Assembly (NCBI GenBank): GCA_020055645.1
Contig: CM034546.1
Coordinates: forward strand, 102,238,001-102,302,000
Reading direction: 5' to 3'
From: Tomocerus qinae
Taxonomy: Eukaryota; Arthropoda; Collembola; Entomobryomorpha; Tomoceridae
DNA: 64,000 nt
Below are positions 17,801-59,053 of the stretch, piece after piece (the stretch's first letter is position 1; each line of letters begins with the position of its first letter). Under the pieces are notes generated by a model that saw nothing but the letters and a program-made list of their open reading frames with translations, had not been told where the DNA came from and ran no database searches. The translations under genes and the position numbers were made by a program.

Positions 17801-20638
17801 ATGGCTCCGACGGTAATAAAAATAAAAAACTATACTACTGTGGTAAACTTTACGTACACTTACACTTAATTCCCTTTACACACTCCCACCGAGATACAAT
17901 TAACGAGGGAAGCGAGTTAAGTAAAGTATCTAATAAGAAATTGGTGTTTTTACAGAACTTCCTGACAAGAGTACTTTACCAGGATTTGTGGAGCACAGAA
18001 ACTATTACCAACTTTCATCCGAGGGAAAGTCCATTTGCGATAGGATTGTATCTGTAGTGGGATATGCCTACCCGGAAATTACTTATTGTCCCCTTTTGCT
18101 CCCTGTTGCCTCGCTCTTTCTGCACTACGTCGAGGTACTTACTCTCTTCTATTGCTCTCCAGGATTTTCTATCTCTCTCTCTTTCATAACATCTCTCGAA
18201 TTCGGTTTACAAAGGAATTTTTACGGAGGCTGTTTAAGCCGAGAATGCTGTTCATTCTTCTTCACAGCAAGATTTTATGGAGAGATGTATGTGGAGTGGA
18301 ATATAAATTGTCTAATGGAATTCTGTTGTCGCTTCGTTGATTTCAGGAGGAGAAAACATACAACTGCATTTGCACACTACTTTCAGCTCGGCAAAAAGTC
18401 TTTCTAACACAAACGAAATTGCAATGGGAGGTTACGAATGTCACCGCAATGCAGCTCACCAAAAAATTTTCCGTACGCTTTCAATTATCTTTGTACTAGT
18501 TTAAAAAGTTTGAAATGTTACGGCCCAAATTATAATCCTTTTAGTATTCTAATCAAAACTTTCATTCGAGTTTAGAAGTCTGCCTTCAACTTTGTGGCTC
18601 GACAGGTCAAACCTGGAGAAAAGATCGAGCAGCTTTTCAACGGATGGATTTGGTGGATTTTTAGAGACTTGCCACTGGCTCATTTGGTAATTTTAAATTG
18701 CTACATTTCTATGTTTATTGCATTGGTGATGAATTCAAACAATCGAATTTATTTTCTTGTTCCACATTTTCAATAGGCAAGAGTTATGGATTGTTTCCTT
18801 GTGGAAGGAATGAAGGTTCTGTACCGGGTGGCAATAGCCATCTTGCTCAATTTCAGCAAGGCCGCCAGTTCCGACTCAACGTGGTCTAGTCAACTAGAGA
18901 ATTCTGGACTGGAGAATACAATTTCGAAATATTGCCAAAGTTTGCCTGTAAGTAATACAGCTGTACTTTCCGCTGTACATTCCATGAAGTTTTGCTAGAT
19001 GTTCGAGAAATGTACATCGATTTGTTTTTTTTTTTTGCAGATGACACCGCAAAGGCTGCTAAAGACAGCATTTTCGATCCGAGCATTCCGAGGCTCTGAA
19101 ATTAGGAAAACGTCGACAAAAGTGGAGTTAGTTTTGAAGAGCAAGTCAACGGGGAAGGATGGGAAATTGCAACGCTCGAAGTCCTCAGAAAATATGCCAA
19201 CGAGCCAATCGCAACATGATATTCAGATGATGTCTCATACTTTGGCTATCAAAGAAGTGAGTCATCCGCCCATGGTGATGCCCCTGTCTTTTTTAACAAT
19301 ACTAATATTTCACACAAGTAGTAATAGCAATTCTGCCGGAATTGGTCTTCGTCTTACATACTAACTATGCAATTACTCCCTTAATTCTTCTCACGCTCTT
19401 GCTGTAGTAAATTAGAAACGGTTTCGCAAAGCATTTTTCTATTTTGCAAGGTACTCTAGTTCGAAAATATTTTAGCTTTTCTGGCTTTTCAGAGTAAATA
19501 ATGTACAGCCTTTAATTACGCTAGTATAATTACCAGTAAGTTTCCTTTGCTTTGAACTTAATATCTGATGGTAAAAATGCGTTGTTGTATTCCGTGCTAA
19601 AAACTAAAAATTAACTGGTAAACAAACTTTTTACACGCTGCTGGAAACCAATTTGACTGAATTGGGTTAAAGGGTAAAACTACGCCAGAGCATAAAACTC
19701 AATCTATGGGTCATTATCTTATTAATGATCTCAAGTCAACTATTGCCTGTAAAGACGATGTAAGTGAACCACTTAGTCATTATTTTGTAGTCGTTGGTTG
19801 GGTAAATCTTTCTGAACTTTCAAGCTTGGCTATTTGGACAAAAATTCTAATTATGTTTTGATTTATAAATGTGAATGACCTGAGATTTAATTTTTGGTGT
19901 GAATAGCTACTAATGGTTTGGCAATGGCTACCAGTGAGAATAACTATGTACCAGCCAATCATGTTGTATACGACTGAAGAACACGGCTGTTCCCTCACGA
20001 CCTTCTTTAACCGAGTGGAAAATCACGAGCCTACAATTCTCACCATAAAAACCACGAACAATGAAGTAAGTTTGAGGAAGATTGTGAAATTTTATTACAA
20101 CTACTCCAAATAAAATGGAGCGACTCTTGTTAGTTCTGGGAATAACACTTTGTTTCAATGATAGGTCTTTGGGGCTTACTGTTCAAGTGCTTGGGCACTA
20201 CGAAACACAAAAGATGAGCGTGGAGAACGTCAGCGATATTTTGGAACTGGAGAAACATTCCTGTTCAGTTTGAGACCGGAAATGGTGAAGTATCCCTGGG
20301 TAGGCATTCAGCCTCGTAAAGACGACGAAAATGAAGATGATACTTCGAATGGCAATAATAAAATCCATCACTCAGCTGAGCTCTTTATGCACGCTGACAC
20401 TCACATGATCTCCATTGGAGGAGGGTATGTAAACTTGTTATCTTGCTACAATAGTAATATGAAGTATTATTTTACATAATATTCCCCTATTTCCAGGAAA
20501 GGACAAGGTTTGGTTTTAGATGAAGATCTGAGATTTGGAAAGACAGAAAATTGCCAAACTTTTGAAAACCCTCCTCTAGTCCCATCCAAAGACTTTGAAG
20601 TTTGCGTGATAGAGGTGATTGGTTTTAGTGGCATGTAA
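11655..20638 (+). CDS. TBC1D24: TBC1D24/Skywalker-like protein (TBC plus TLDc domains)
   Basis: Ten coding exons: 11655-11853, 17414-17812, 17956-18134, 18347-18472, 18576-18686, 18777-18947, 19041-19256, 19907-20065, 20165-20424 and 20497-20638 (stop TAA). All junctions are GT-AG and keep frame, giving about 653 residues; human TBC1D24 is about 560. Residues 1-66 are a charged, Ser-rich leader. The TBC domain runs from about 110 to 350, with the family-diagnostic ARVMDCFLVEGMKVLYRVA after a Trp-rich helix. A basic segment (FSIRAFRGSEIRK) aligns with the phosphoinositide-binding region of the family. The TLDc domain fills about 468-653, including EHGCSLTTFF, HEPTILTIKTT, FGTGE and the GGGKGQGL loop. 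Known family members bind ARF6 and phosphoinositides, act in synaptic-vesicle and endosomal traffic and oxidative-stress resistance, and lack a catalytic Arg/Gln finger. The assignment is firm; the start is less so because a second first exon exists. Confidence 0.9.
11854..16649 (+). other. Long first intron of the TBC1D24-like gene
   Basis: This is a 4.8-kb AT-rich interval between the two alternative first exons. I see no further exon or recognisable mobile element. The 3' part should contain the promoter for the internal start, but no defined motif can be named. Confidence 0.5.
16650..16755 (+). CDS. TBC1D24: Alternative first exon 1b of the TBC1D24-like gene
   Basis: ATG at 16650 opens 35 codons plus one base, ending at a GTATGT donor. 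This is the same phase-1 junction as exon 1a, so it joins 17414 in frame (split codon Lys). The peptide is short and aromatic-rich (MGRWSFFDAYCSDNF, then YYGYSY), quite unlike the acidic exon 1a. Use of this start would give about 622 residues. The matching phase, open frame and good donor support a real alternative promoter, but transcript data are needed to rule out chance. Confidence 0.5.
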
Positions 20639-36500: not shown

Positions 36501-37831
36501 AGTAAAATTAATCTTAGAAATGTGTTTATTGTGAGGAGGTCGGAGGTAGACGAATCTTTTGTGTGTGTTTTCAACAAGTATTCCCACACATTCCGGTCCA
36601 TTACCTCATCCTCCACCGAGGGCACTCAACAGAACCTTCCGTTTCTATTCATTCATCATTCACATGTTTGCATTGTTAGACAGTCCCTTCATTGTATTGT
36701 CGTAATCCTGTTAAAAGAACTCGTCGTGTTTACGTAGGTGCTAACCAAAGAGACATAAAGGTGCTAAACATGTCTAACAGTTGCTCAGTTGTCATTTGAC
36801 ACTCCAGAAGACAAAACTTTAACTTCTGAGATACACACAACTATTCCTTTTTTGAAATCATTTAACTTGACCATTTTCCCAGACACCTTTTTGGTGCCAT
36901 TCTTGCCTTAAGGTTATAATATCCAAATATTTACTCCTCTGCGACCATGCTTACTTATTAAACAATGCCTTAAAAGAACTCACGATTACGTATTAAGCAA
37001 AATTAATTATTGTCTCTAGCTACTCGATTAAAACATCCATTGTTAACAAAGCCCGAACATTATAAATCAACTAGTATCATGATCATCTAAGAGTCAACGC
37101 ACAAAAAATGGAGATCTCAATTATACAATACACTTTTGGTTCTTGCCGACAGATATTTACCTATCTTATTATTGCAAACATATTATTCATTTACCTTTAA
37201 AGACAATTCTTGGATCTAAAAGTTAAAAAATTGACTGTGCTGCACTGTAATGAAGATGTTTTAAATTATTTCGACCTATCTGCACCGATATACAAAGTGA
37301 AAAGGTTTGTGAACTGATTTCAGTTCACGGTGACAGCTTGATCATTACTGGTGGTGATCTACATATTTTAGAGTCTTTAGAGACAAACTAATATTACAAA
37401 TCTTAGGACAATCTCAATATAAGGCAAACGTTACATAATGAATCCATTTTAATTTAGTAATTAATTATTGTATTAAATATTAATAGCATTATAGATTTTG
37501 TGTTGTCTTGTTGATTCATAATTACAACATTAAGTTGTAGGTGGTGGATGAACAAAATATTGCATTCATCAGATGTGAAAAATTAATTTTTTTGTTGCCA
37601 TTAATCAGTCGGACTGGTGGCACAGTTTCGTTTTAGTGGATGAAGACATTTTACGTGAGTGAGCAAAGGGCGAGGTCATCCTCCCCATTTCATGCGTACA
37701 CATTATAGAAATGAGGGAGAGCCCAAGACCTAGATTTGCTTATCAATTTCCCATTCCTTACCGCAGATAACGTTCATTCAAAGCATAAATAAACACTAAC
37801 ATTGCTCTTTTCATTCCTTACATCATCTACT
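21510..37831. other. About 16 kb with no supportable gene
   Basis: Both strands show only short, low-complexity open frames (none above about 95 codons) with no domain, no splice-linked series and no Gly-X-Y coding. It separates the TBC1D24-like gene from the collagen gene and should include the collagen promoter at its right end. No tRNA, CRISPR or clear terminal-repeat element was found by eye. Non-coding RNAs cannot be excluded. Confidence 0.5.
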
Positions 37832-40800
37832 ATGTATTTGAGTTGCCATTGCTTTACTAAATTATTTTTAGCTAGCTTACTGCTTGTATGCAATCAACTG
37901 ACAAAAGTACTAATTATTTCTTGGAATTGTATAATTCGCAGCAATATAATCCCTACGAAGAAAACGGATACAACAGAGGTGATGAAAACGGATATAACCG
38001 AGGCGATGAAAACGGATACAACCGAGGTGGAGAAAACGGACATAATCGAGGTGGAGAAAACGGATATAATCGAGGAGGTGGAGAAAATGGATACAACCGA
38101 GGTGGAGGTGGAGACGACAGTTATTTCTCTAGAAGTTCAAGCAATGGTAATAGTAGGAGAGGAGACAGTCGAGATCGGGCTAGAGAACGTGATGAACCTG
38201 ATTATTCCTACGGATATGGTGAGAGAGAAAGAGAGCGAGGTCATGACCGAGAGCGGGAAAGAATTGGATACGGACTGGACACTTCTCCAGGAGCTGGCTA
38301 CCCTTATGAGAGACCATCGGCTCCAGTATCTGCAGAAGGCAATACTTCTCGCTGCTCTTCCTGCTGTCAACCAAGATGTTTAGCTGAAAAGGGATCCAGG
38401 GTTAGTTCTTTTACATTCTGTATCTATTTATAAAAGAATGAAAAGCTATCTTGAAAATCTCATTCTTAAGATTAAGATCAAACTATTACATCTGTGTGCA
38501 ATGCAAGAAATGCATCATCATAAATAATTGTGGACGCAGAATCGTTTGTAACAATAGGAAACGTAGTAATTGGTTTCTTTTTTACTCCTCGCTGGGCAGA
38601 GCAGTAGGAGCAAGGTATTATTTTCATTTGGTAGGAGCGCATTCTGCTAAAATATTGTTTCCCTCCTCTTTAATAATTTTTGAGGGATTCCTTAAACGAG
38701 GCATTGCACTTTTAAGGAGATTCATTATTGGTAGTAAGTTGCCGTATAAAGGTGGAAATATCTATATTAGGAGAATGTGTTACTGAATTACACGGGAGTG
38801 GATTATGATGTGGATGATTATTGAGACGTAGGAGCTGGAGAGATGAGATTGGAAGTGAGTGAGATGAGATTTGTTGGGGTTGAGTGGGGCTAAGCTGTGG
38901 CTCATGGCTCCCCTCGCTCTCTATTAATCATCCCATCATCGGCTCTCTTTTCACAGACTCTCGTTCGACTTCTCTCATTCCATCATGTACTCTTTGACTG
39001 GAGACACAAACACATTCGTGTGTACACGAACAAATACACAACTCACAGGCACTACGTACTTTGCATACTCACAATGTCCCTTCAGCCATCGCCTGCTTCT
39101 CTTCCTATGCATAAACAGATATCTTTATTATTGATGTGTTTATGTAGGACGTCTCGCTTTAAGTCGCTCCCTCATCCTCCTCGTGGATTTCACAAATACA
39201 AACTAAAACAAAACTCACTCAGTCTCTCTTCCTTTAATAGAGTCTTCTCGTGTCCTTAGGGAACACACCAGTCAACTTGAGATATAGATGTACCTTGCAC
39301 CCTTACCCATTTATCCCTTTTATAGATTACATATTATTTTTGTACCATTCATAATGCACTACGATGGACAAACTTACAAGAAATGGTATAAATTGTATCC
39401 ATACGGAATATGCCTTGTTTCTGGCACAGAATATACTAAATACCTTATCTTCAATCTACACTAAAGCTAAGATTTATGTTTCTAACATGTCTGCTTAGAT
39501 CTGGAGATTTATGACACTTGATATCTACTCGGATCTGATAAAGACCTGAACAGAGTATATAATATAGCTATAGAAGTACTATTCATGCCGAGTAGGAAAC
39601 AAGTACAAATGTTCCGTTGTTTCAGAAATCCCTATTTTCTGGCCTGGAAGCAATTAGTACTCTTTTCACACAAAATTGACATCTGATCCGGGTAGCTGAT
39701 TTGTTCCGTTGTGTGTGATTGCCAGTCGTGTGGGCTTTTTTGACGAGCCCCTTAATACCATGCGTGTAATTTCTACCCTTCGGTTAGTTGAAGTCAAATC
39801 CTCAACTAATTGGTGCACATATACTAAGTATAATATTACATATACAATACACTTGAAAACCCAACAAGAACAAGAAAAGAAACATCTACTTACTACTCCA
39901 TAGTCTCACATCATTATGCAATTTATTGAGTTATACTTTGTAAATATTTGTCATGCAAGCCATATATGTTGAAAGTTGAAATTGTGTTCAGCTATAGGGA
40001 AAAACATTAATTTTTAGTGGATAGGTATACTAAATATTTGATATACTATGTATATCCAATTTTGTGAAGGTAAAAATGCACCAGTAACGATGCAATGACA
40101 GTGTTATTGAGTTTAGAAACTATGTACATAGATATTCAGAAAGTAATAGCCATTATGCTTACTATGTGCTAAGGCATAAGCATAAAATAAATATGCATGC
40201 ACAAATGCCCATTATTCGTTGATTTATTAATGCAATGTCACATTTTGTGAACTTATTTCTCGCTTTTAAAACAAGAGTCCTTACTGATCTTTATGTGTAG
40301 AGTTCATCATATTTCATCTAATAGTTTACACATACGAAAATTTTTTCATGCTTAGAATACACGCAAAACGGACAAATTAAATGATAAAACCGGATTATAA
40401 TTTTTGTTGTGCCATCTTATTTGTGACAAAACCATCATGCACCATTTTTTTCCAGGATATTAATATATTGAATATTTTTATTTAATGCAGATTCGAAACT
40501 AAATTGACTAATAGTTAATAATGTGTGTTTGACATTTGCAACTACATTAGTTTGCATATCTATCAAGAGCACGACAATATTCTACTGGAATGTGACGAAA
40601 ATAAGTGTTTGAAAATAGAATGCACCTAAATAAATGTAAAGCCACAAAATGTCTTTTGATTATAGATGTAGGAGACGAAGAAAAGAAGAATGTTTGGTAG
40701 AGTAATGTGAAGTGTACCTTTCGACCTCATCCTTTCTTCCTCAATTTTGTACGCACATGGTACATATACTTATGCAGGGGATACAAAATAGAACTTTGAA

Positions 40801-43800
40801 CGTTGCATAATATAAGTAGATAGGGTGCGTAGTGCATAGATATATGCATTGGGAAGGCTCGGAGATATTTACTTTGGTGAATATAAAAAGGCAGAGTCGT
40901 GTGTAGTTTTTTATCGTTGGAAATCTTGAAAAATAATATTTCAACTTTGCTCTGGAGCATAATAAAGAAGACAGGGGAAGGAAGGAGAGAAAAGAAAACC
41001 CGTGCTACACAGTCTACGCTGAATGCACATTAACGTGAATGGATCTGCTGAGACATTTACGAAGCATAAACGAAATGAAATGCATGACATGACAATTGGC
41101 ATCGCGTCAATCTCTTGCATACCATGTTCCTTGTAATAATACCGGTTTGAGCTTAGACATCAAAATTAAGCCGGTCCTGAATCTCGAAAATACTTGAGGC
41201 AGTAGTGAAGTAGTAATAGTCTCCCTAATAACTATTAACTAGTACATTAATGCTACACTAGATTCTGGTACTAATCCTAACTTATTGGAGATGTTTCATT
41301 ATGGCTACTATATAATCCTCTATAGTGTTGGATATTATTAATCATAGTTATTAAGTGGTTATGTAAACGAAGACGAGAATATTTTGAGCAGAGCATGAGG
41401 CGTGAGAATCTCATTGAGAAGACACACCACACCTATTAGTAACATCTTTTCTACTCGTGAAAGCCTCCATTGTCAAGTTTTACAGTAGAACGATACATAA
41501 ATAAGGGTGTTTAGTGTTTTATATTTATAGCATACAAATCTCTAATACACACCAACATCTATTTATCTTTAACTAGTTTCATTTCTTATACACACGCGTT
41601 TTTTGTATTCTACAGTACTAAATGCATAGTGTATTTGTACTCTTGGACAGTAATAACTTTGCAGTTAAATCATTTTGGTATTATCCGTTAAATGTAAGGT
41701 AGAATGATTTGTGTGCGTAAGTCATCAAAATGCACAACAGGGAAGTTAAAATGGGACGATAAAATCTTCAAAATAAACACACGTTTATATACTACAGGCT
41801 CATTCAATCTAAAAAATGTAATAGAGGGATAAACGATATAATATCCCCTTGAATTACTTATGCGAGATAATGCACCTGCATTCTCCATGTGTATTTTAGT
41901 AATAAACACTGAAGACACGTTTTACTATTTACGAGAGTCTGGCTCGAACATGCGGTAGGTGGTACACTCTCTGAAAAGTAAAAGCACGTTTCCAATGTCT
42001 AAATGCTAACCATTCCTACTGACATAGCACGTAGTGTGACGATATGCTTCTCATTGCTATGTGTAATAACTGTAGTGAAATAGATCATAACATTCGGTAA
42101 ATTATGCGCCTAGGTCTCACCAGACGCTAAATGTATAATAAGATGCAATTGCACATGGAATGTGTTATGTAATTTTAGACTGTTTTTCCTATACCTTGTC
42201 TCAGTTTGACTCACTGAACTTGGCCGTGCTGTTATTTCGAATATCTGAATACTTTTGCTTCAAAAGAGCTCTGAACTTCTCCTACGCAAACCTCTGCTTT
42301 AATTTGAAAATATCCGAATCTCGTACAGATGAGACAGTCTAAGACAAATAAACATCTTTGGATGTGTATATTCTGCATTATTATGCTCACGAGAACTTGA
42401 AACGGAAGGGAAAACGAGCGGCTGTCGCGTGCGGTGCACTTTTCCTTTTCTAATTTTCTTCCTCAAATAAATTGTTATTGCGACAATGCTGACTGATTGA
42501 AGAAGCTAATGAATATTTATTATTTTAGGGACCACCTGGAGTAACTGGGCTACAGGGAGACAAGGGTCAAGTTGGATTCCCGGGAATGGAAGGTTTACCT
42601 GGTCCAAAGGGAGATAAAGGAGATGCTGGAATTCAGGGACCTCGTGGCCCTAAGGGAGACCGTGTAAGACAAATTTCTTTTCTACTCATTTTCTATTCTG
42701 ATCAAGATGTTTCTATTGTAAAACTTTATTTTCCTAACAGGGTAAAATGGGAATGCCTGGTTTCCCGGGTATACCTGGTATCCCAGGTCTTCAAGGAATT
42801 CAAGGAGCAGCCGGAACTCCAGGAACCGATGGTTGTAATGGAACTGACGTAATAATTGTTTTTTACCTTTGCTGTATCATAAATCTCAGATGATAATATT
42901 TCTTTCTTCATTGTGGTTGATGTGTGTAGGGCAGCCCAGGGATTTCAGGTTTGCCGGGTAATCCTGGACCAAGAGGATATGCTGGGAATCCGGGAGAAAA
43001 AGGCTTTAAGGGAGAACCGGCTATAGCTAGACCAGGAGGAAAGGGGCAAAAGGGAGAACCAGGACTTGTAGGACAAAGTGGACCAGTCGGTCCGCCCGGA
43101 CTTCCTGGGATAGACGGAACAAAAGGCACCAAAGGAGATTCTGGTCTTCCCGTATGCAACTTTTAAAACTAATTTTTCACAACCAACTAGTTCTAACGGA
43201 TTTTACTAACAGATTTGTTTTTATTCTCATAACTAAAGGGGGCTCCGGGATTGGCTGGGCTGAAAGGAATAAAAGGAGAAACGTGTGTAGCTTTTGAGGG
43301 ACAAAGAGGAGACAAGGGAGATAAGGGTGCAAAAGGCCCTCCTGGAGCACCTGGAAATAATTACACGTTTGCTGGATCCAATGAAACTGTTTTTGTCGGG
43401 CCAAAAGGAGATATGGGAATGAAAGGAGAGCGAGGAGATGTAGGCAGCTCCGGAATGCCTGGACCTATTGGATCACCAGGTTTTCCGGGAATTCCTGGCG
43501 AATCTGGCATGAAAGGAGAAAAAGGACTTCCTGGACCAGTCGGACCAAGAGTAAGATAAATTACCATTGATCAGATATTAGCAATTCTTGGAGATATTTT
43601 ATTTCTCTTGATCACCCTTGCTAATGACGTTGTTAAAATAATTAAATTTTCCCTTACGATTTCTTTAATAGTTATCGATCATAAACAAGTTTTTTAATTA
43701 TTTAGGGTAGAGATGGCTATCCAGGGCCAGTGGGACCATCAGGACAAAAAGGTGATCGAGGAGAATCTGGTTTGCCAGGTCTGTCTGGTTTGAAAGGGCA

Positions 43801-46800
43801 AAAGGGAGATCCGGGACGTGATGGAGAAAAAGGTTTCATCGGATTGCCAGGACCACAAGGTCCTTCTGGGGTAATTACATCTAAAATTTCAATGTGGTTG
43901 TACGAATATTAACATTTGGGTGGAAATATAAATTTTCTCTTTGTTTTAGTGTTTAAAAGGCATTGCTGGCTTACCTGGCGATGAAGGTCCTAGAGGATAC
44001 CCTGGATTACCTGGACCGAAAGGTGAAGATGGTGTGCCAGGACTACCCGGAATAACTGGATCACCTGGGCCAGTCGGAGGTAGAGGATTGCCTGGACGCG
44101 ACGGACTAGAAGGATTACCAGGAATAAAAGGACAAAAGGGTGAAGGTGGTTTGATGGGTTTGCCCGGTGAAAGAGGCTTTGTCGGACTTCCTGGTCCTAA
44201 TGGTCAACCTGGTGCTCCCGGAAGACCTGGAGAGAAAGGATTATCTATCATTGGACCAAAGGGAATGGATGGGGCACCCGGCCGTGATGGGTTACCTGGA
44301 CAGAAGGGAGAACGAGGATTTCCTGGACCCCAAGGTGCATCTGGTGATTCACAACAAGGAATTCCCGGAGGCAGGGGACCACAAGGTTGGTGCATTTAAC
44401 TATTCGCAATTTCATTTCTTTGGCGATTACATGATGCTTTTGGTAAAGGTCCTAAGGGCACTGCGGGAAGAGACGGAGTTCCAGGCCGACCTGGCATTCC
44501 CGGATCAGAAGGACAAAAGGGAGATCACGGAGGAGCTTGCTCTGATTGCCGTCCTGGAGAACCTGGTATCAAAGGGGAGCGTGGAGTTAATGGAATTTCT
44601 GGGTTACCCGGAGCCAGAGGCCAACCTGGTGAAAGAGGTTACCCCGGTGAACGTGGAGAAGATGGTTTACCAGGGATTTCAGGCCTTCCAGGGAAAGATG
44701 GTGAGCCCGGTTTTCAAGGAGCACCAGGAAGCAAAGGAGAAAAAGGAAATTCGGCTGTAGCTCCTGTTATTGAGGGACCACCTGGCATGAAAGGAGAAAA
44801 AGGAGAGGTAGGCAGAGCAGGATTTCCAGGCGCGCCTGGTCAAGAAGGTCAGAAAGGTTTTCCTGGATACTTGGGACTCTCTGGACAAAAAGGGGACAAA
44901 GGGGATCGGGGCCAACCAGGCTTAGATGGAATTCCTGGGAGTCCAGGAATAAACGGCTTCAAGGGTGACAAGGGAGAAAGCATCAGAGGCGACCGCGGGT
45001 ACCCAGGAAGAGATGGAGCACCAGGATTTAAGGGAGGCCCGGGTCCTCAAGGTCCCAAAGGTGAAGAGGCTAAATGTCCGGAAAATATTATGGACTTACA
45101 AAAGGGACCGAAGGGAATGACTGGACCACCTGGTCCAGCTGGTGATAAAGGTGATATGGGATTAAAAGGAAATCCGGGATTACCAGGAAGAACAGTAAGA
45201 ACTTGATTATGTAATTTATGGTAGGATATTCTTAGCATGGGTGCAGTCAGCATTTTTCATTTTTTCAGCTTTTATTTGCGCCAAAAATAACTTACCGTAG
45301 ATTCTAGAATTATTAGAACACCAATTAAGTAATTGTGAAAGTAATGATTGTCTCCAAATAGTTTGGTTGTATTTATTTAAATAGGGAGACCGTGGTTACA
45401 AAGGGGAACCTGGACCACCTGGACCTGTTGGTCCGCGAGGATTACCTGGACCTCGAGGAGATAAAGGAAACATGGGACCTTTGGGCTTTAATGGCGAACC
45501 TGGAGAGCCAGGACGCCCTGGTATATACCAAAACATATTTGCAAATTAAATACAAAGTATTGTGCATTTACTTGGTTGATAGCCTCTATCAAATACTATA
45601 GGTATATCTGGACGACCTGGATTATCTGGATTGAAGGGTGAACCTGGAATTCCTGGTATTGGACCACCTGGACCTCCCGGTTCGAAAGGAGACAAAGGAG
45701 AGACCGGATTAATTGGTTTGCCGGGAAAACCTGGACTGTCAGGCATTCAGGGAGCACCAGGGTTCCCCGGTGAAAAGGGAGACATCGGACAGAATGGATT
45801 GGATGGTCTTCGGGGACCGAAAGGCGACCCAGGACCTGTTGGACCACCTGGAATTCCAGGACCCAGAGGACCTCAAGGGCAGTCCGGATTAGATGGAAAA
45901 ATTGGAGCGATTGGAATCCCTGGTGAACCTGGAGCAGCGGGTCTGCCTGGATTTCCAGGTACATTTTTACACTGTCAGCTATAAACGCAAAGGTATTATA
46001 TTTAAAGATTTTATTCCATTTAAACAATGGCAGGTCCAAAGGGAGAAACAGGATTAGGTGGTGTAGACGGACAAAAAGGTTTCGTAGGCCCCAGAGGATT
46101 CCCTGGAGCCCCCGGTGTTCCTGGAATGGACGGATTACCTGGAGAAAAAGGTGATAAAGGTGATCGAGGATTAGATGGCTTCCCAGGAATTCCAGGACCC
46201 AAGGGAGATGCAGGTTCGTTTGGACAACTGGGAGACAAAGGGGATAGAGGATTATCTGGACTTCCGGGGCCTGTAGGTGCTCCTGGTTTGACGGGACCTA
46301 AGGGAGAAAGAGGACCGCCGGGATTAGCGGTAACAAAAATTATTTATTTTATGTACTATATTCTGGCTACAACTTAGCTATAATCAGCTACAGCTCAGTC
46401 ATTAGTATTAATGTTGCTCTTTTCCCCGGATCAGATACTAAATAACCTACACCGCTTTTGCTTGAATTTTTAGGGACTGAAAGGTGAACCTGGAAGAGCG
46501 TCAGAGAAGGGCATAAAAGGTGATAGAGGGCCTGAAGGCTTACGTGGTGCTCCTGGCACTCCTGGTATTGATGGGCTACCTGGAGAGAAAGGTGACGTTG
46601 GGCTTCCAGGATTTGGACCACCGGGATTCCAAGGTCTAAAGGGAGAGAGGGGTCAACCAGGTCTGTCTGGATTACCGGGTCCTCAAGGACCCCCAGGATC
46701 TGAAGGAATACCTGGGTTCCCAGGTAGCAAAGGAGACAGGGTAACCAAACTAGTCATTCTACTAAGACAATTTATCGGCTTTCCTGTCATAAAATGTATA

Positions 46801-48978
46801 CATGGTATCCATATAGCCTATTTGTGTCGCCCCACACAATATTACATACACCGTTTGGAGTTGGCGCACGTAGGAAATGGAAGGCAACGGATTACAAATA
46901 TACAATCTTATAAAATGTTTTTTGACTTTTCAAAGGGTTCCGTTGGAATTCCTGGAGCCCCCGGTGAACCTTGTCTTGATGGAATGCCCGGAGATAAGGG
47001 TGATCGTGGCTTCCCTGGAATTGAAGGTCCTCATGGACCAAAGGGCGACAAAGGAAACCCGGGTCAAGCAGGGTTTGACGGAACAAAGGGAGAACGAGGA
47101 GGCCCTGGTAGCCCTGGTCTTCCAGGTTTCCCTGGTGAAAAAGGTCCGAAAGGAGATACTGGGCGAGGGGTTGCAGGACCACCTGGTCAGCTCGGACCCC
47201 CTGGCCTGCCTGGACAAAAGGGAGATATAGGTCTCAGAGGTTTAGATGGAAGTCCCGGTGCCAGAGGAGAAAATGGTTTGCCTGGTCCTGCTGGACTACC
47301 CGGAAGAAAAGGAAATGAAGGACCGCGAGGAGAGATGGGAGAACGAGGTCCTCCAGGGCCTGCTTCCCAGACTGCGAGGGGAGAGAAAGGCTTGCCAGGT
47401 CCTCCTGGACCTCCAGGTCGAGATGGTGTTCCTGGTACTAGAGGAGATAAGGGTGAGCCTGGATTCCCAGGTTTGCCTGGTACTAAAGGCCAAATAGGAG
47501 AGCCAGGACCCATTGGACCTCCGGGAGAAAAGGGTGATCGAGGAATTCCGGGGCTTTCGGGTATTTATTTTCGTATTTTTATTACTTTTAAAGTATGGTT
47601 TAGAGTACCTAATAGCCAATGTAATATTCAAATCCAGGTATACCTGGAAACGATGGACGACCTGGAAATGTCGGATTTGATGGTCAACCGGGATTGGCTG
47701 GAGAGAAGGGAGATCGAGGACTCCCTGGCATACCAGGAATTCCTGCAAGCAAAGGAGAACGTGGAATACCTGGTGAATCTGGACTTCCTGGCCTGATGGG
47801 TCCAAAAGGAGAACGAGGACTAGATGGACTCAATGGAGTTCAGGGTCCTACTGGTCCGAAAGGAGATCGTGGATTAGACGGATTACCCGGAGCTAAAGGA
47901 GCAATTGGTCAACCTGGTCAGAGAGGAGACAGAGGAGAGCCTGGCCATTCTGGACCATCTGGCCCAAAAGGTTGAGACGATTATATGGCATATACATTTC
48001 ATTGTATGTAATTTACAGTTTTGATAATTGGTATTACTAGGTGAACCTGGTGTCCCTGGTCTATCTGGACTAGAAGGAAAAATGGGACCACCTGGTGTGC
48101 CTGGTGCTCCTGGCTTAAACGGTTTTAAAGGAGAGCCAGGTCGTCCAGGTTTGAATGGCGTACCAGGACCTCCGGGGGTAGCTGGACTAAAGGGTGATCG
48201 TGGTTTTGATGGTCCAGTCGGAGTTGCAGGGGCAAATGGGGCACCTGGACTGAAAGGAAGGCCTGGAGAACCGTGCAAAGAATCGGAGGAATACCTGTCT
48301 GGAATCCTTTTGGTCCGTCACAGTCAATCTACATCAGTTCCCCAATGTCCTGATGGACAAGTTCGACTCTGGGATGGTTACAGTTTATTGTACATCGAAG
48401 GCAATGAAAAGGCTCATCATCAAGATTTAGGATTCGCAGGGTCCTGTATTCGTCGTTTTAGCACGATGCCTTTCTTATTCTGTGACATCAATGACGTCTG
48501 CAATTACGCCAGTAGAAACGATAAATCCTACTGGTTGTCTACGAATGGAGCTATACCAATGATGCCCGTCTCAGAAGATGCAATTCGTCAACACATTTCC
48601 AGGTGCGTTGTCTGTGAAGCGCCGACGAACGTCATTGCATTTCATAGTCAGAGCTTAGACATTCCAAATTGTCCTCGCGGATGGAGCAGTTTATGGATTG
48701 GTTACAGTTTCGTTATGTACACGGCAGCCGGTGCCCAAGGGGGTGGTCAATCTTTGGCCAGTCCCGGTTCGTGTCTGGAGAGTTTCCGGGCTACACCTTT
48801 CATTGAGTGTAGCGGCTCTAGAGGAACTTGTCATTACTTTGCTAATAAATATTCTTTCTGGTTGGCCACAATCGAAGATAGTGATCAGTTTGAGAAACCA
48901 CAGAGTCAAACACTCAAGAGTGGTAACCTACGATCACGTATATCAAGATGCCAAGTGTGTATAAAATCCTCAGGGTAA
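37832..48978 (+). CDS. Type IV collagen alpha chain with RGD-repeat N-terminal extension
   Basis: Proposed exons: 37832-37906, 37942-38400, 42529-42663, 42741-42848, 42930-43151, 43239-43550, 43706-43870, 43950-44385, 44449-45194, 45385-45520, 45602-45958, 46034-46329, 46474-46740, 46936-47560, 47638-47970 and 48041-48978. This gives about 1,869 residues (human alpha1 has about 1,670). In order: signal peptide ([10 protein letters not shown] core), about 153 residues of repeats, RGD motifs and a Cys cluster (CSSCCQPRC), then an interrupted Gly-X-Y helix with a 7S-like GCNGT site, then NC1 with two C4 repeats and 12 cysteines. Introns are phase 0 or 1, and the phase-1 introns split Gly codons. 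The product is a secreted basement-membrane network former. Exons from 42529 on are very secure, the 37942 exon is likely, and the signal-peptide exon is tentative. NC1 mixes alpha1- and alpha2-like residues, so no subtype symbol is given. Confidence 0.93.
37960..38112 (+). repeat. In-frame coding minisatellite ([16 protein letters not shown], six units)
   Basis: Four 24-bp units are followed by units of 27 and 30 bp, each starting GAAAAYGGAYAYAA. They encode ENGYNRGD twice, [16 protein letters not shown], then versions with extra Gly. The first two units contain RGD, and a third RGD followed by Ser lies just downstream (RRGDSRD). The unit length is a multiple of three and the frame is intact throughout, which points to coding constraint. 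Unit number may vary between alleles. Confidence 0.9.
38401..42528 (+). other. Long intron of the collagen IV gene
   Basis: This is a 4.1-kb interval between the N-terminal repeat exon (donor GTTAGT) and the first Gly-X-Y exon (acceptor TATTTTAG). Both ends are phase 0. Several open frames of 60-120 codons inside (for example 38897-39259) lack domains or links, and I treat them as chance. A missed short 7S exon cannot be fully excluded. Confidence 0.6.
48298..48975 (+). other. NC1 domain of the collagen IV chain
   Basis: The last 226 codons form the non-collagenous trimerisation domain, with two homologous C4 halves of six cysteines each. Diagnostic strings are [25 protein letters not shown] and SYWLST in the first half, and [30 protein letters not shown] and [12 protein letters not shown] in the second. 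A Met near PMMP and a Lys in TLKSGNLR lie where the Met-Lys sulfilimine crosslink forms in known collagen IV, so crosslinking by peroxidasin is possible (inference). Confidence 0.95.
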
Positions 48979-52059: not shown

Positions 52060-55000
52060 GTTCCGATCCGAAGTATTCCAGTATTGCCTTTGAATTATGC
52101 TCCATGTTCGGAACATGATTTTTCTAGCAGTCTTTCCTGGAAAGCAATAATCAAGGAAGAAATTTGGTACTCATTTTTGCAGTTCCAGTTCCACCAAGCA
52201 AAAGTAACCATAAAAGAATTGGTCAATGTGATATATGACCCATTTCTCTTCTATTTCGAGCACAATTCCCAATTTTTTAAAGATTTTTGTTCAATCATAG
52301 GTGAGATATTGCCTTCTCGCATAAATACATTATACGAAAATTGACATTAAACCAATTATTACTGATAAATATTGAGCAAAATTTATATGAAATTGTGTTG
52401 AATTAGATACGACTATGTCGATTCCTTTGATTATCGGAAGCTCCACACGACGAAACAGACCAGGTATTTTACGACCAAGGAATACTCCTGCTATTCCAAT
52501 TTTGGAGGAGAAAAATGTCGAGAAACCTTGTGCCAGTAAAGAGAAGGGAAGTCAAACAGTAACTTCTGGATCAAATGAAAATAAGGAAAACGTAACTACC
52601 ATTGAAACGAAAATTTTAAAGGTTTGTCACAGGAAGGGGAACCAGCCGCATCAAAATATTACCAGCAATCGCCAAGAAATCTCTGTGACCCAATGTCTGG
52701 ATCCATTTAACACAATGCTACCTGAAGAAGTTAGTACAATTTTTAACTTTGAAAACGTAACTAGTCCTTTCTAACTTCAGTATATATGTATTATTTGCAA
52801 ATAGAGTTATTGTCAAGATTTTTTTTAACAAACTAACAACACGACACACTGACACTTGACATGCTCTTGTTTATATCGATTGCTAAAAGAAACAGAAGAA
52901 TATTTTCCTCGAACATGCAAGGTTATTGTTATAATTCCAACCAACATTCTATTTTATTTTTTCACAGATGAGACACTTCATTTTTGAAAAACTATCATTT
53001 GAGGATCTACTCGTTTGTAGAACTGTGTCCAAAGCATGGCAAAAAGCCGTGGAGTCATTCAACAAGTTTCATGTCATAATTGATGATTCAAAAGATTTTA
53101 GTGGCACATGTAGCATTAGAATGAAAGTGTGCGAGATACACACATTGATGAGTTCTCAAAATCGACATTTATTTCAAGCTTCAACTCCAGATAGTGTTGA
53201 GATTGTCAAGCGCATCAGTCAATGGAATTTTGGGGAAATGGCAGCAAAATGGCATAACTTAACCAGATTAAGAATTGGTTGGAAAGCATTAATCAGTGTC
53301 TTTTTATTCCGAAATTGTGCTAAATACCCGACAAAAGAGGAAATGGTGATGGGATGGGATCAAGGAGGAAATAGAGCTGCATGCGGATTTTTGCCTGATT
53401 TAGAATGCATCTGTCTTGAAGTCGCTACCTCGGTGGATGGAGAAATGTTCAAAATTCTCAATCAAAACCTCGGATACTTACTTCAATGGCAATATCCATC
53501 TCTAGCTCACATTACAGTAAGATTCCTGAAAACGTTCATTTTCTGTTCTTATTCATATGTATAGATTGATTTGTGATATAGATATCTGATTAATTTGAAA
53601 TTTTTTTTATTTACAGATTAACTTTCTTGAGAATAGCGTACAACAGGAGTTACTCAGCAAAGTCAGTTCATTTGTTCGTAGTCACGCTCCCACCTTAAAG
53701 AAAATAGATATTCAATTCAGTAATTTAAACCGTAGAATTCCAAGATGCATTCCTCAGCGATCCTTACTTTTCGACACAGACATCTGGGATTGGAAATGCC
53801 GTTCTCATATATCGAAAGGCCACCCTATTAAATTATCTGAATACAGTCTTGAATATCCTTATAAAAACTCGGCAATTGAGAAAGAAGATAATTCCAAAAA
53901 ATGGCAGCAAATTCTACAGCATGAAAGACAATTTGAGTTATTAATTATTTCTAAACTTCAGCTGAATATTCGTCGTGCCGACTACTTCTACTTTTTCATC
54001 AAAATGTATTCTGAACAACTTACAACAATCGAACTGATCAATATATCCGTCTATGACATCGAAAAGCAGGACAAAATGACTCCAGTCGACATCAACTTGT
54101 TTAAGGATTGTGTCAATCTGAAAGCATTGGGCCTATGGCGAGCGCCCATTCTTTTAAATGAAGTGGTGCCTGAAGCGTCAAGTGAAATAATAAACTTATC
54201 TTGCTTACCAAAATCAATTTCTAGCCTAACTCTTGATGGTCTTCCTGTTCAGAGTGCTGAATTACTGACTATGATACAAAACCTAAACCATCTCTCCAAG
54301 TTTAGCTATTCACGTGCCGCTATGCCTCGAAGAAATCACCTTCCACTAAGTGGAGTCACTTTAGAAGTACTGGTAGCTCTAATGACTCACTCGTGCCTGG
54401 CTAAAATGGACGTTATGACTGCGTCTTCAGTGCCTCGAGACTTTCATACTGACACAGAAATCGGGGTTTCAACCTTAATTTCAACAAAAAAGTGGAACAT
54501 ACAAGACATCAGACAATTATGGTACAATTGCGTAAAGATAACCATGGTACGTAATTTCACTGTCAAAAAAATTCCTTGAGCTAAATATTTTTAAGACTAT
54601 GCACACATTCTTGTCTACAAAAATTACACAACCGTTTCCTGTTTGTTTTCGTTCTCATTACATCTATATAACCATACTATTATTGTTATAATTATTTTTG
54701 CTTGTTTTTATATTGCGATTTGCAATGGTTTATTTATGTTCCATTCTACGTAAACGTAGCAGTATGTATTTATACACTACGAGATATTTATTTTATGAGT
54801 CTAAGGGGTAATTTAAAATGTAAGTGATGATTTAAGAATGTTTTATTTTCATATTGTTAACTGTTTTTAAAGGAATAACAAAATTCGTTCATAAGCAGTT
54901 TGTTCCTGTTGACTTTGCGTTTTTAAATCCTATAAGAAATATAATTCTTAGGGATGGGAATATGGGATTGGGGGTTTTTATGCGTTTTTAGAAAGCACTG

Positions 55001-57750: not shown

Positions 57751-59053
57751 ATGGGTGCATTTTTTGGGAAAAATAAAAAGCCACCGTCCCCTCCTTCCCG
57801 AATTACAGAACAGGACAGAGCAGTATTGGTTAGAAAAATTATCCGTTATTATTTCTTATGATATTGATATATGTATATTTATGTTACAGTTATGGGTATA
57901 AAATTTAATACATTTATTTATTACCGTTGCATTAGTTTGCACAAATTACGACTAATCAACAAGTGACAAGTAGTGTAGTATATAGTATATATACTAGTAT
58001 ACATAGCTTGGGTTGGGAATTGGGTTACAGTTCCCTAAATAATTAATCTCCTCGTGTGTAATAAAATAATTTTTGGTTTATTATAGGATTTAAAAAAGCA
58101 AAGGGATCAATTGAAACAGTATCAAAAAAATATTACAATTACTCTCGCAAAGGAGCGTGAATTAGCTAAGAAGTTGCTGCTCGACGGAAAAAAGGAGTAA
58201 TATTTTGTTTTATTACGTTTAAAAGTTTTCAAATTGATTGGATATGTTTTCGTTTAGCTTCCTTAAACTATTCTTACTTTGTAGAAGTTTGAATTGCAAT
58301 TACAGGGCTTTAATTCGGCTGACACCTTTCCTTATTAGAGCGGTTTAGAACAAGCTATTTACTTCTAACAGTTTTTATTAATCATCTAAATTGTTAATTG
58401 TAGCCGAGCAAAACTGTTACTAAAGAAGAAAAGATTCCAAGAAACTTTACTGCAAAAATCTGAAGATCAATTAGACAACATTGAGCAAATGTGTTCAAGC
58501 TTAGAGTTCGCTCAGTTGGAAATGAAGGTAACAATGTCAATTAAAATTTAGTAGTTGTTTTTCTTCGTTCACTTCTACCAATTCTTCCATATATAATAAT
58601 CTGTTGTTGTTTATGTCTTAATGCATTAAATGCTATACTCAGGTAATGGAAGGATTGAAAAATGGTAACGAGGCGCTGAAGAAGGTGCACGACATGATGT
58701 CCATAGAAGATATTGAGAAGATCTTAGACGAAACTCGAGAAGGTGTAGAAAAACAGAACGAAATCGACGCACTCCTAAGCAACAATTTGAGTCCAGAAGA
58801 CTTAGAAGAGGTAGAAACGGAGCTGGAAAAGATCATGGCGGAAGAAAACGTCCAAATACAATTATCTCCCGATTCGGAAGTTGTCTCTTTGCCTGATGTC
58901 CCAGAGACTCCTCTTCCAGAATTGCAAGGTCGGGGTTTAGTTGTAATTGCGTGACAAATCTTTACGAAACCGGTTTCTAATAATAATGTTTAAATTTTAG
59001 AAAAAGAGCCTGCCATCCGCAGAGCTGAGAAGGTCATGGTTGCTGCTTCTTAA
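57751..59053 (+). CDS. CHMP6: Charged multivesicular body protein 6 (ESCRT-III subunit)
   Basis: Five exons: 57751-57828, 58087-58196, 58404-58527, 58643-58928 and 59001-59053 (stop TAA). All are GT-AG and in frame, giving 216 residues (human CHMP6 is about 200). An N-terminal MG gives the myristoylation-type start (MGAFFGKNKKPP). A basic Snf7 core follows (KKQRDQLKQYQ, RAKLLLKKKRFQETLL, LEFAQLEMKVMEGLKNGNEAL), then the acidic autoinhibitory half with MSIEDIEKILDETREGVE. The MIM2-like SLPDVPETPLPELQ near the C-terminus is the motif by which CHMP6 binds the VPS4 MIT domain. CHMP6 (yeast Vps20) links ESCRT-II to Snf7/CHMP4 polymerisation at endosomes. It is divergent from PIGX. Confidence 0.95.

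What the first reader, a model, noticed from the sequence alone, without database searches (positions are those of the whole stretch)
37942..38400. Collagen IV chain with an RGD-bearing ENGYNRG repeat domain before the triple helix
Seen: an exon encodes six ENGYNRG(D/G) units, three RGD motifs (two in repeats, one RGDS), an Arg/Glu/Asp-rich stretch with tyrosines, and a Cys cluster. It ends in phase 0 at a GT donor. The next exon downstream on this strand starts in phase 0 with GPPG and runs into an unmistakable collagen IV helix. Known: collagen IV N-termini are normally a short signal peptide plus a Cys-rich 7S region, with no long low-complexity RGD domain. Inference: this chain carries a new, non-helical, probably integrin-binding, charged N-terminal module that could change 7S network assembly or cell adhesion.
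Basis: partly seen in the sequence, partly recalled or inferred. Interest (0 to 1): 0.82.

Follow-up and report, generated by a model that had tools for sequence, protein, structure and literature searches.

The report
Collagen IV with disordered repeat-bearing N-terminus
An arthropod (probably springtail) gene for collagen IV, the main net-forming protein of basement membranes, carries a floppy repeat-rich stretch in front of its normal start region; the stretch looks real and unusual, but its suggested cell-binding role is unproven.

Summary
The exon is real and most likely belongs to a collagen IV gene. Window 37942-38400 encodes 153 residues: six ENG(Y/H)NRG units, three RGDs, a charged Tyr-containing stretch and four Cys. 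It joins in phase 0 (donor 38401, acceptor 42529) to a 1457-residue interrupted Gly-X-Y helix and an NC1 domain. The "Cys cluster" is not a new module: [20 protein letters not shown] is the ordinary 7S start. What is unusual is the 137 residues before it. They look disordered and are absent from the only other helix-bearing collagen IV gene found in this genome, whose signal-peptide exon leads straight into its Cys cluster. Repeat copies differ more by synonymous than nonsynonymous changes only in the collagen frame. The RGD claim is weak: two of three RGDs sit in repeat units, four of six units read RGG, and six more RGDs lie in the helix. The signal-peptide exon is unresolved: a TATA/Inr-like pair and a hydrophobic ATG exon lie just upstream (37784-37885), but the implied 56-base intron is shorter, and its splice sites weaker, than any in my reference set. 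No transcript and no orthologue could be examined. Verdict: a pre-7S variant of a known protein, moderately interesting.

The parts
37784..37816 (+). TATA-like CATAAATA and initiator-like TCATTC (A at 37813), 29 bases apart: candidate core promoter
   Evidence: 2 such pairs on the + strand of the 64-kb window, 0 on the minus strand; 100 first-order Markov sequences gave mean 0.7, maximum 4. Motif form chosen after seeing the site
37832..37885 (+). candidate signal-peptide exon [18 protein letters not shown] (uncertain)
   Evidence: 7th of 12 rows; did not pass the stricter thresholds; donor 3.0 bits, below the weakest (3.2) of 76 donors; no cleavage site passed the simple rule after splicing
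37886..37941 (+). candidate 56-base first intron with TACTAAT branch-like motif (uncertain)
   Evidence: shorter than all 75 introns modelled in the two collagen IV genes (minimum 63); acceptor 0.3 bits
37942..38352 (+). pre-7S segment, 137 residues: leader, six ENG(Y/H)NRG units, Arg/Glu/Asp/Ser/Tyr-rich stretch, one NTS sequon
   Evidence: disorder of the whole 153 residues: hydropathy 0.291 against boundary 0.42, mean pLDDT 47
37959..38107 (+). 24-base tandem repeat array, 6.1 copies
38353..38400 (+). 7S N-terminal Cys cluster and linker [16 protein letters not shown], ending at donor 38401
38401..42528 (+). 4.1-kb intron
42529..48255 (+). helix-coding exons with 13 introns; helix 1457 residues, 18 Gly-X-Y segments of 9 or more residues, 95% in Gly-X-Y; end approximate
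48256..48978 (+). NC1 domain (two C4 repeats), approximate start; stop codon 48976-48978

Best explanation
The exon is the first mature-protein exon found of a Cg25C-like collagen IV chain. A conventional four-Cys 7S start is preceded by 137 disordered, charged, Tyr/Gly/Arg-rich residues, whose six repeat units arose by tandem duplication of a 24-base element. In the assembled net these segments would protrude as flexible, nearly charge-neutral brushes at each 7S junction. There they most likely act as spacers that tune how 7S ends pack or what they touch, and only possibly as integrin ligands. Shown: sequence, reading frame, splice signals of the join to the helix, absence from the sibling chain. 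Inferred: the transcript, secretion, position at the 7S node, brush role. The confidence given is for the anatomy; rivals 1 and 2 share that anatomy and differ on function.
For: Repeat differences lean synonymous only in this frame. Good donor 38401 and acceptor 42529 (both in the training set). In-phase chain of 1844 residues with its single stop at the end. NC1 matches C4 and solved NC1 domains (mammalian alpha2 367 and 366 bits, 8tys_A, which I take for fly Cg25c, 364, alpha5 363, alpha1 354 and 351, Viking 255-256). Sibling gene on C5: a signal-like exon leads directly to SCAGCNFEPCFCKGQKG. No other match of the 153 residues at E 0.001 in the 334-Mb genome (6 candidates scored; counts of repeats there are lower bounds). 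Hydropathy and pLDDT 47 with no residue at 70 or more fit disorder.
Against: No transcript. The acceptor at 37942 is weak (0.3 bits). No convincing signal-peptide exon was found between 18 and 37.9 kb, although the same search ranks the sibling's signal exon first of the 8 rows shown. The disorder model used a single sequence without an alignment. No orthologue from another species could be compared, so maintenance rests on non-independent repeat pairs within one gene.
Confidence: 0.75

Rival explanations
1. Integrin-binding module: the RGDs in the flexible segment are real ligands for an RGD-binding integrin at 7S junctions, as the first reader suggested (same anatomy, different function).
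For: Three RGDs in an apparently exposed, disordered segment; three or more occur in 0.2% of residue shuffles. RGDS at residue 73 lies outside the repeats.
Against: Two of three RGDs lie in repeat units 1 and 2, so they are not independent; four of six units read RGG; at least one RGD arises in 26% of shuffles. Six more RGDs lie in the helix. The integrin alpha search was uninformative: PF08441 found nothing here or in the 14 control genomes.
Confidence: 0.12
2. Neutral low-complexity expansion: replication slippage lengthened a tolerated pre-7S spacer that has no specific role (same anatomy, no function).
For: Clean 24-base tandem array; the sibling chain lacks any such segment.
Against: Differences between copies lean synonymous in the coding frame (36 against 22), although a few changes are counted over many pairs and 22 nonsynonymous differences remain.
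Confidence: 0.3
3. Separate gene: the exon belongs to another transcript, for example the frame-2 ORF read without splicing from ATG 37832.
For: Frame 2 is open from 37793 to 38383 and includes a hydrophobic leader. The acceptor at 37942 is weak.
Against: The repeats show 8 synonymous against 33 nonsynonymous differences in that frame, and it stays open over the exon in 22% of codon reshuffles that keep the collagen-frame peptide. The frame-1 ORF ends in a 7S start and a donor in phase with the helix.
Confidence: 0.06

Closest known systems
Drosophila Cg25C, collagen alpha-1(IV)
   Same: NC1 similar at 364 bits (8tys_A, which I take for Cg25c). Recalled, not tested: C-x-P-K-C-I-A-E-K-G-x-R-G 7S start and a non-helical segment with an RGD before it.
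   Different: Recalled fly segment is shorter and has no ENGYNRG repeats. Fly 7S has three N-terminal Cys (PMC10694668, passages seen); this chain has four.
Second collagen IV gene of the same genome (C5:12.962-12.976 Mb)
   Same: Signal-like exon, four-Cys 7S start, interrupted helix, C4 matches.
   Different: No pre-7S segment; 63 introns modelled in its helix part (62 kept), against 13 in the helix/NC1 part of the window gene.
Drosophila Pericardin
   Same: Collagen IV-like matrix protein with one RGD near its C-terminus that the authors consider a possible integrin anchor (PMC5936059, passages seen).
   Different: RGD at the other end, and the protein is collagen IV-like, not a canonical chain.

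Membership tests
Collagen IV | C-terminal NC1 with two C4 domains | tested here: met
   PF01413 E=3.2e-87, two stretches
Collagen IV | Long Gly-X-Y domain with many interruptions | tested here: met
   1457 residues, 18 segments, 17 interruptions
Collagen IV | N-terminal 7S Cys cluster directly before the helix | tested here: met
   Cys 138, 141, 142, 146, then AEKGSR and GPPG; splice join inferred, no transcript
Collagen IV | Pair of Cys within a helix interruption (cystine-knot type; described so in PMC10694668, passages) | tested here: met
   interruption CSDCRP with Cys 643 and 646; homology of its position not tested
Collagen IV | Signal peptide | tested here: inconclusive
   candidate at 37832 with weak splice sites; no strong alternative in 18-37.9 kb
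Integrin RGD ligand | RGD required for cell adhesion | not testable with these tools
   only the sequence motif is present
Integrin RGD ligand | RGD enriched beyond composition and conserved | tested here: inconclusive
   three or more in 0.2% of shuffles, one or more in 26%; 2 of 6 units carry RGD; no orthologues available

The most novel reading that the evidence does not exclude
In this lineage the collagen IV 7S node has gained a multivalent disordered RGD/Tyr brush that binds integrins or is cross-linked through tyrosines, adding a cell-adhesive or cross-linking function at the 7S end of the net.
Probability: 0.12. Interest if true: 0.65.

Novelty: new variant of a known kind. Interest (0 to 1): 0.36.

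Why it matters
Collagen IV is one of the most conserved animal matrix proteins (general knowledge). A lineage that adds a long disordered segment at the 7S junction gives a natural test of how much the junction tolerates and whether adhesion can be added there. If the segment is only a tolerated spacer, it still suggests that the stretch before the 7S Cys cluster is free to evolve.

Tried and rejected
Rejected: the Cys cluster as part of a new module. Not pursued: two loose pattern matches for another collagen N-terminus, one in the 4.1-kb intron (ORF at 42333) and one between 20 and 37.9 kb (33000); neither shows Gly-X-Y or an AEKG-like end, and their splice sites were not tested. Set aside: 18786-18947 as signal exon, although it ranks first in the window, because it weakly matches the end of the RabGAP-TBC domain (E=0.039, below the curated cut-off) and so probably belongs to the upstream gene.

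Led nowhere: Pfam at E 0.01 and PDB at E 1 with the 153 residues; Rfam on the window; telomere motifs in eight 3-kb contig ends, no arrays; integrin alpha family (silent in the controls too); integrin beta (not completed).

Papers. Searches (collagen IV with RGD, 7S, arthropod or integrin words; short motifs, 0 papers; Collembola and collagen IV, 2 papers; N-terminal extension, 3 papers) listed no paper whose title or abstract start describes such a repeat segment. Only listings were seen except for passages of PMC10694668, PMC5936059 and PMC10432511. The library lacks most subscription journals.

Limits of the statistics. Introns come from my own Gly-X-Y-guided models of two genes, not transcripts. 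Of 63 C5 introns, one of 46 bases was dropped as implausible before scoring. In the first window model an intron at 45061 was removed and one at 47917 replaced by hand. Donor 38401 and acceptor 42529 were in the training set. The signal-exon search was loosened; the 37832 candidate appears only in the second list. I left the odds as first written; the best explanation now says which part its confidence covers.

Full report
Observation. Tandem Repeats Finder reports a 24-base array at 37959-38107 with 6.1 copies. The 153 residues match nothing in Pfam at E 0.01 and nothing in the PDB at E 1. In the 334,443,149-base assembly the only match at E 0.001 is the window itself; 6 candidates were scored, and the tool warns that counts of repeats are lower bounds.

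Is it coding, and in which frame? Because the period is 24 bases, other frames stay open too: frame 2 runs from 37793 to 38383. Over all pairs of the six units, base differences are 36 synonymous and 22 nonsynonymous in the collagen frame, 8 and 33 in the frame shifted by one, 2 and 47 in the third. Pairs are not independent, so this is an indication and not a test. The shifted frame stays open in 22% of codon reshuffles that keep the peptide.

Does it belong to the collagen? Donor 38401 scores 8.3 bits (median of 76 donors 7.6) and acceptor 42529 scores 13.7 (maximum of 76 is 14.0), with matrices from 75 introns modelled in two collagen IV genes plus these two sites themselves. The joined chain, 15 exons, is 1844 residues with its one stop at the end. 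The residues at the join, [16 protein letters not shown] then GPPGVTG, are a collagen IV 7S start. The helix is 1457 residues with 18 Gly-X-Y segments. The NC1 matches Pfam C4 at E=3.2e-87. Among solved chains it scores 367 and 366 bits with mammalian alpha2, 364 with 8tys_A (named alpha-1(IV), in the entry with Viking; I take it for fly Cg25c), 363 with alpha5, 354 and 351 with alpha1, 341 with alpha4, 324 with alpha3, and 255-256 with fly Viking. I therefore call it Cg25C-like; no tree was built.

The sibling chain. Pfam C4 matches (12 in all) fall in three places of the genome: the window; C5 near 12.975 Mb; and C1 near 16.97 Mb. The C5 gene has a helix for which 63 introns were modelled. 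Its best upstream exon encodes MTKLTLDHRIIYLWSFFLLLLFLPSFSDG (donor 9.0 bits) and would splice in phase 0 to SCAGCNFEPCFCKGQKGLGG. It shows no pre-7S segment. Its NC1 exons were not joined. The C1 place holds two tandem NC1-like fragments with stops and frame changes, and no run of five Gly-X-Y triplets within the 40 kb scanned; I take them for decayed copies.

Signal peptide. The search that ranks the sibling's signal exon first gives no equal candidate here. The top rows (18786/18810) are probably part of a TBC-domain gene (weak). The nearest candidate, ATG 37832, is 7th of 12 rows and did not pass the stricter thresholds. It needs a 56-base intron, while the shortest of 75 modelled is 63, and its donor (3.0) and acceptor (0.3) fall below the weakest sites of the set (3.2 and 0.4). 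In its favour, a TATA-like box (37784) and an initiator-like site (A at 37813) stand 29 bases apart just upstream. Such pairs occur twice on the + strand of the window and not on the minus strand; Markov sequences gave mean 0.7 and maximum 4, and I chose the motif form after seeing the site. Another in-frame acceptor, exon start 37876, scores 2.4. The 5' end is unresolved.

RGD. Shuffling the residues gives three or more RGDs in 0.2% of cases and at least one in 26%. Two of the three lie in repeat units 1 and 2, while units 3 to 6 read RGG. The helix has six RGDs of its own. The motif is present, but evidence that it is selected is weak. The integrin alpha search returned nothing in this genome or in the control genomes and says nothing either way; the integrin beta search did not complete.

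How it may work. The 153 residues hold 24 basic and 27 acidic residues and 14 tyrosines, with mean hydropathy well on the disordered side. An AlphaFold model from the single sequence has mean pLDDT 47 and no residue at 70 or more; without an alignment this is weak evidence. In known collagen IV, protomers assemble through their N-terminal 7S regions and C-terminal NC1 domains (PMC10694668, passages seen). A disordered extension before the Cys cluster would stick out from the 7S junction. A spacer or brush role is my inference; tyrosine cross-linking is speculation.

Organism. The assembly size (334.44 Mb) and second contig (71,848,904 bases) agree with what I recall for the springtail Tomocerus qinae (334.44 Mb, N50 71.85 Mb). 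No call confirmed those figures, so the identification is a recollection.

Verdict. A real exon of a real collagen IV gene, with an unusual repeat-bearing, apparently disordered pre-7S segment. The Cys cluster is ordinary, the integrin role is unproven, and the signal exon is unresolved. It is a new variant of a known kind.

Noticed in passing
L005, L007, L008, L010-L013 (G000 C1:16970999-16979135, minus strand): Two tandem NC1-like fragments resembling the window gene's NC1, broken by stops and frame changes and without a collagen helix in the 40 kb scanned: probably decayed copies.
   Followed up: partly
window 37793-38383 (+): A second frame, open across the repeat exon, includes a hydrophobic leader at ATG 37832 and would encode Thr/Glu/Val-type repeats if unspliced; the pattern of differences among repeats disfavours it.
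   Followed up: yes
window 42529-48978 against L014-L016: The window gene has 13 modelled introns in its helix/NC1 part, the sibling collagen IV gene on C5 has 63 (62 kept) in its helix part: a large difference in intron number between two chains of one genome.
   Followed up: no
window 18786-18947 (+): Short open frame weakly matching the end of the RabGAP-TBC domain (E=0.039, below cut-off), probably an exon of an upstream TBC gene.
   Followed up: partly
window 52935-53564 and 58622-58954 (+): Open frames matching F-box (PF00646, E=1.5e-06) and Snf7 (PF03357, E=2.2e-19) downstream of the collagen gene.
   Followed up: no
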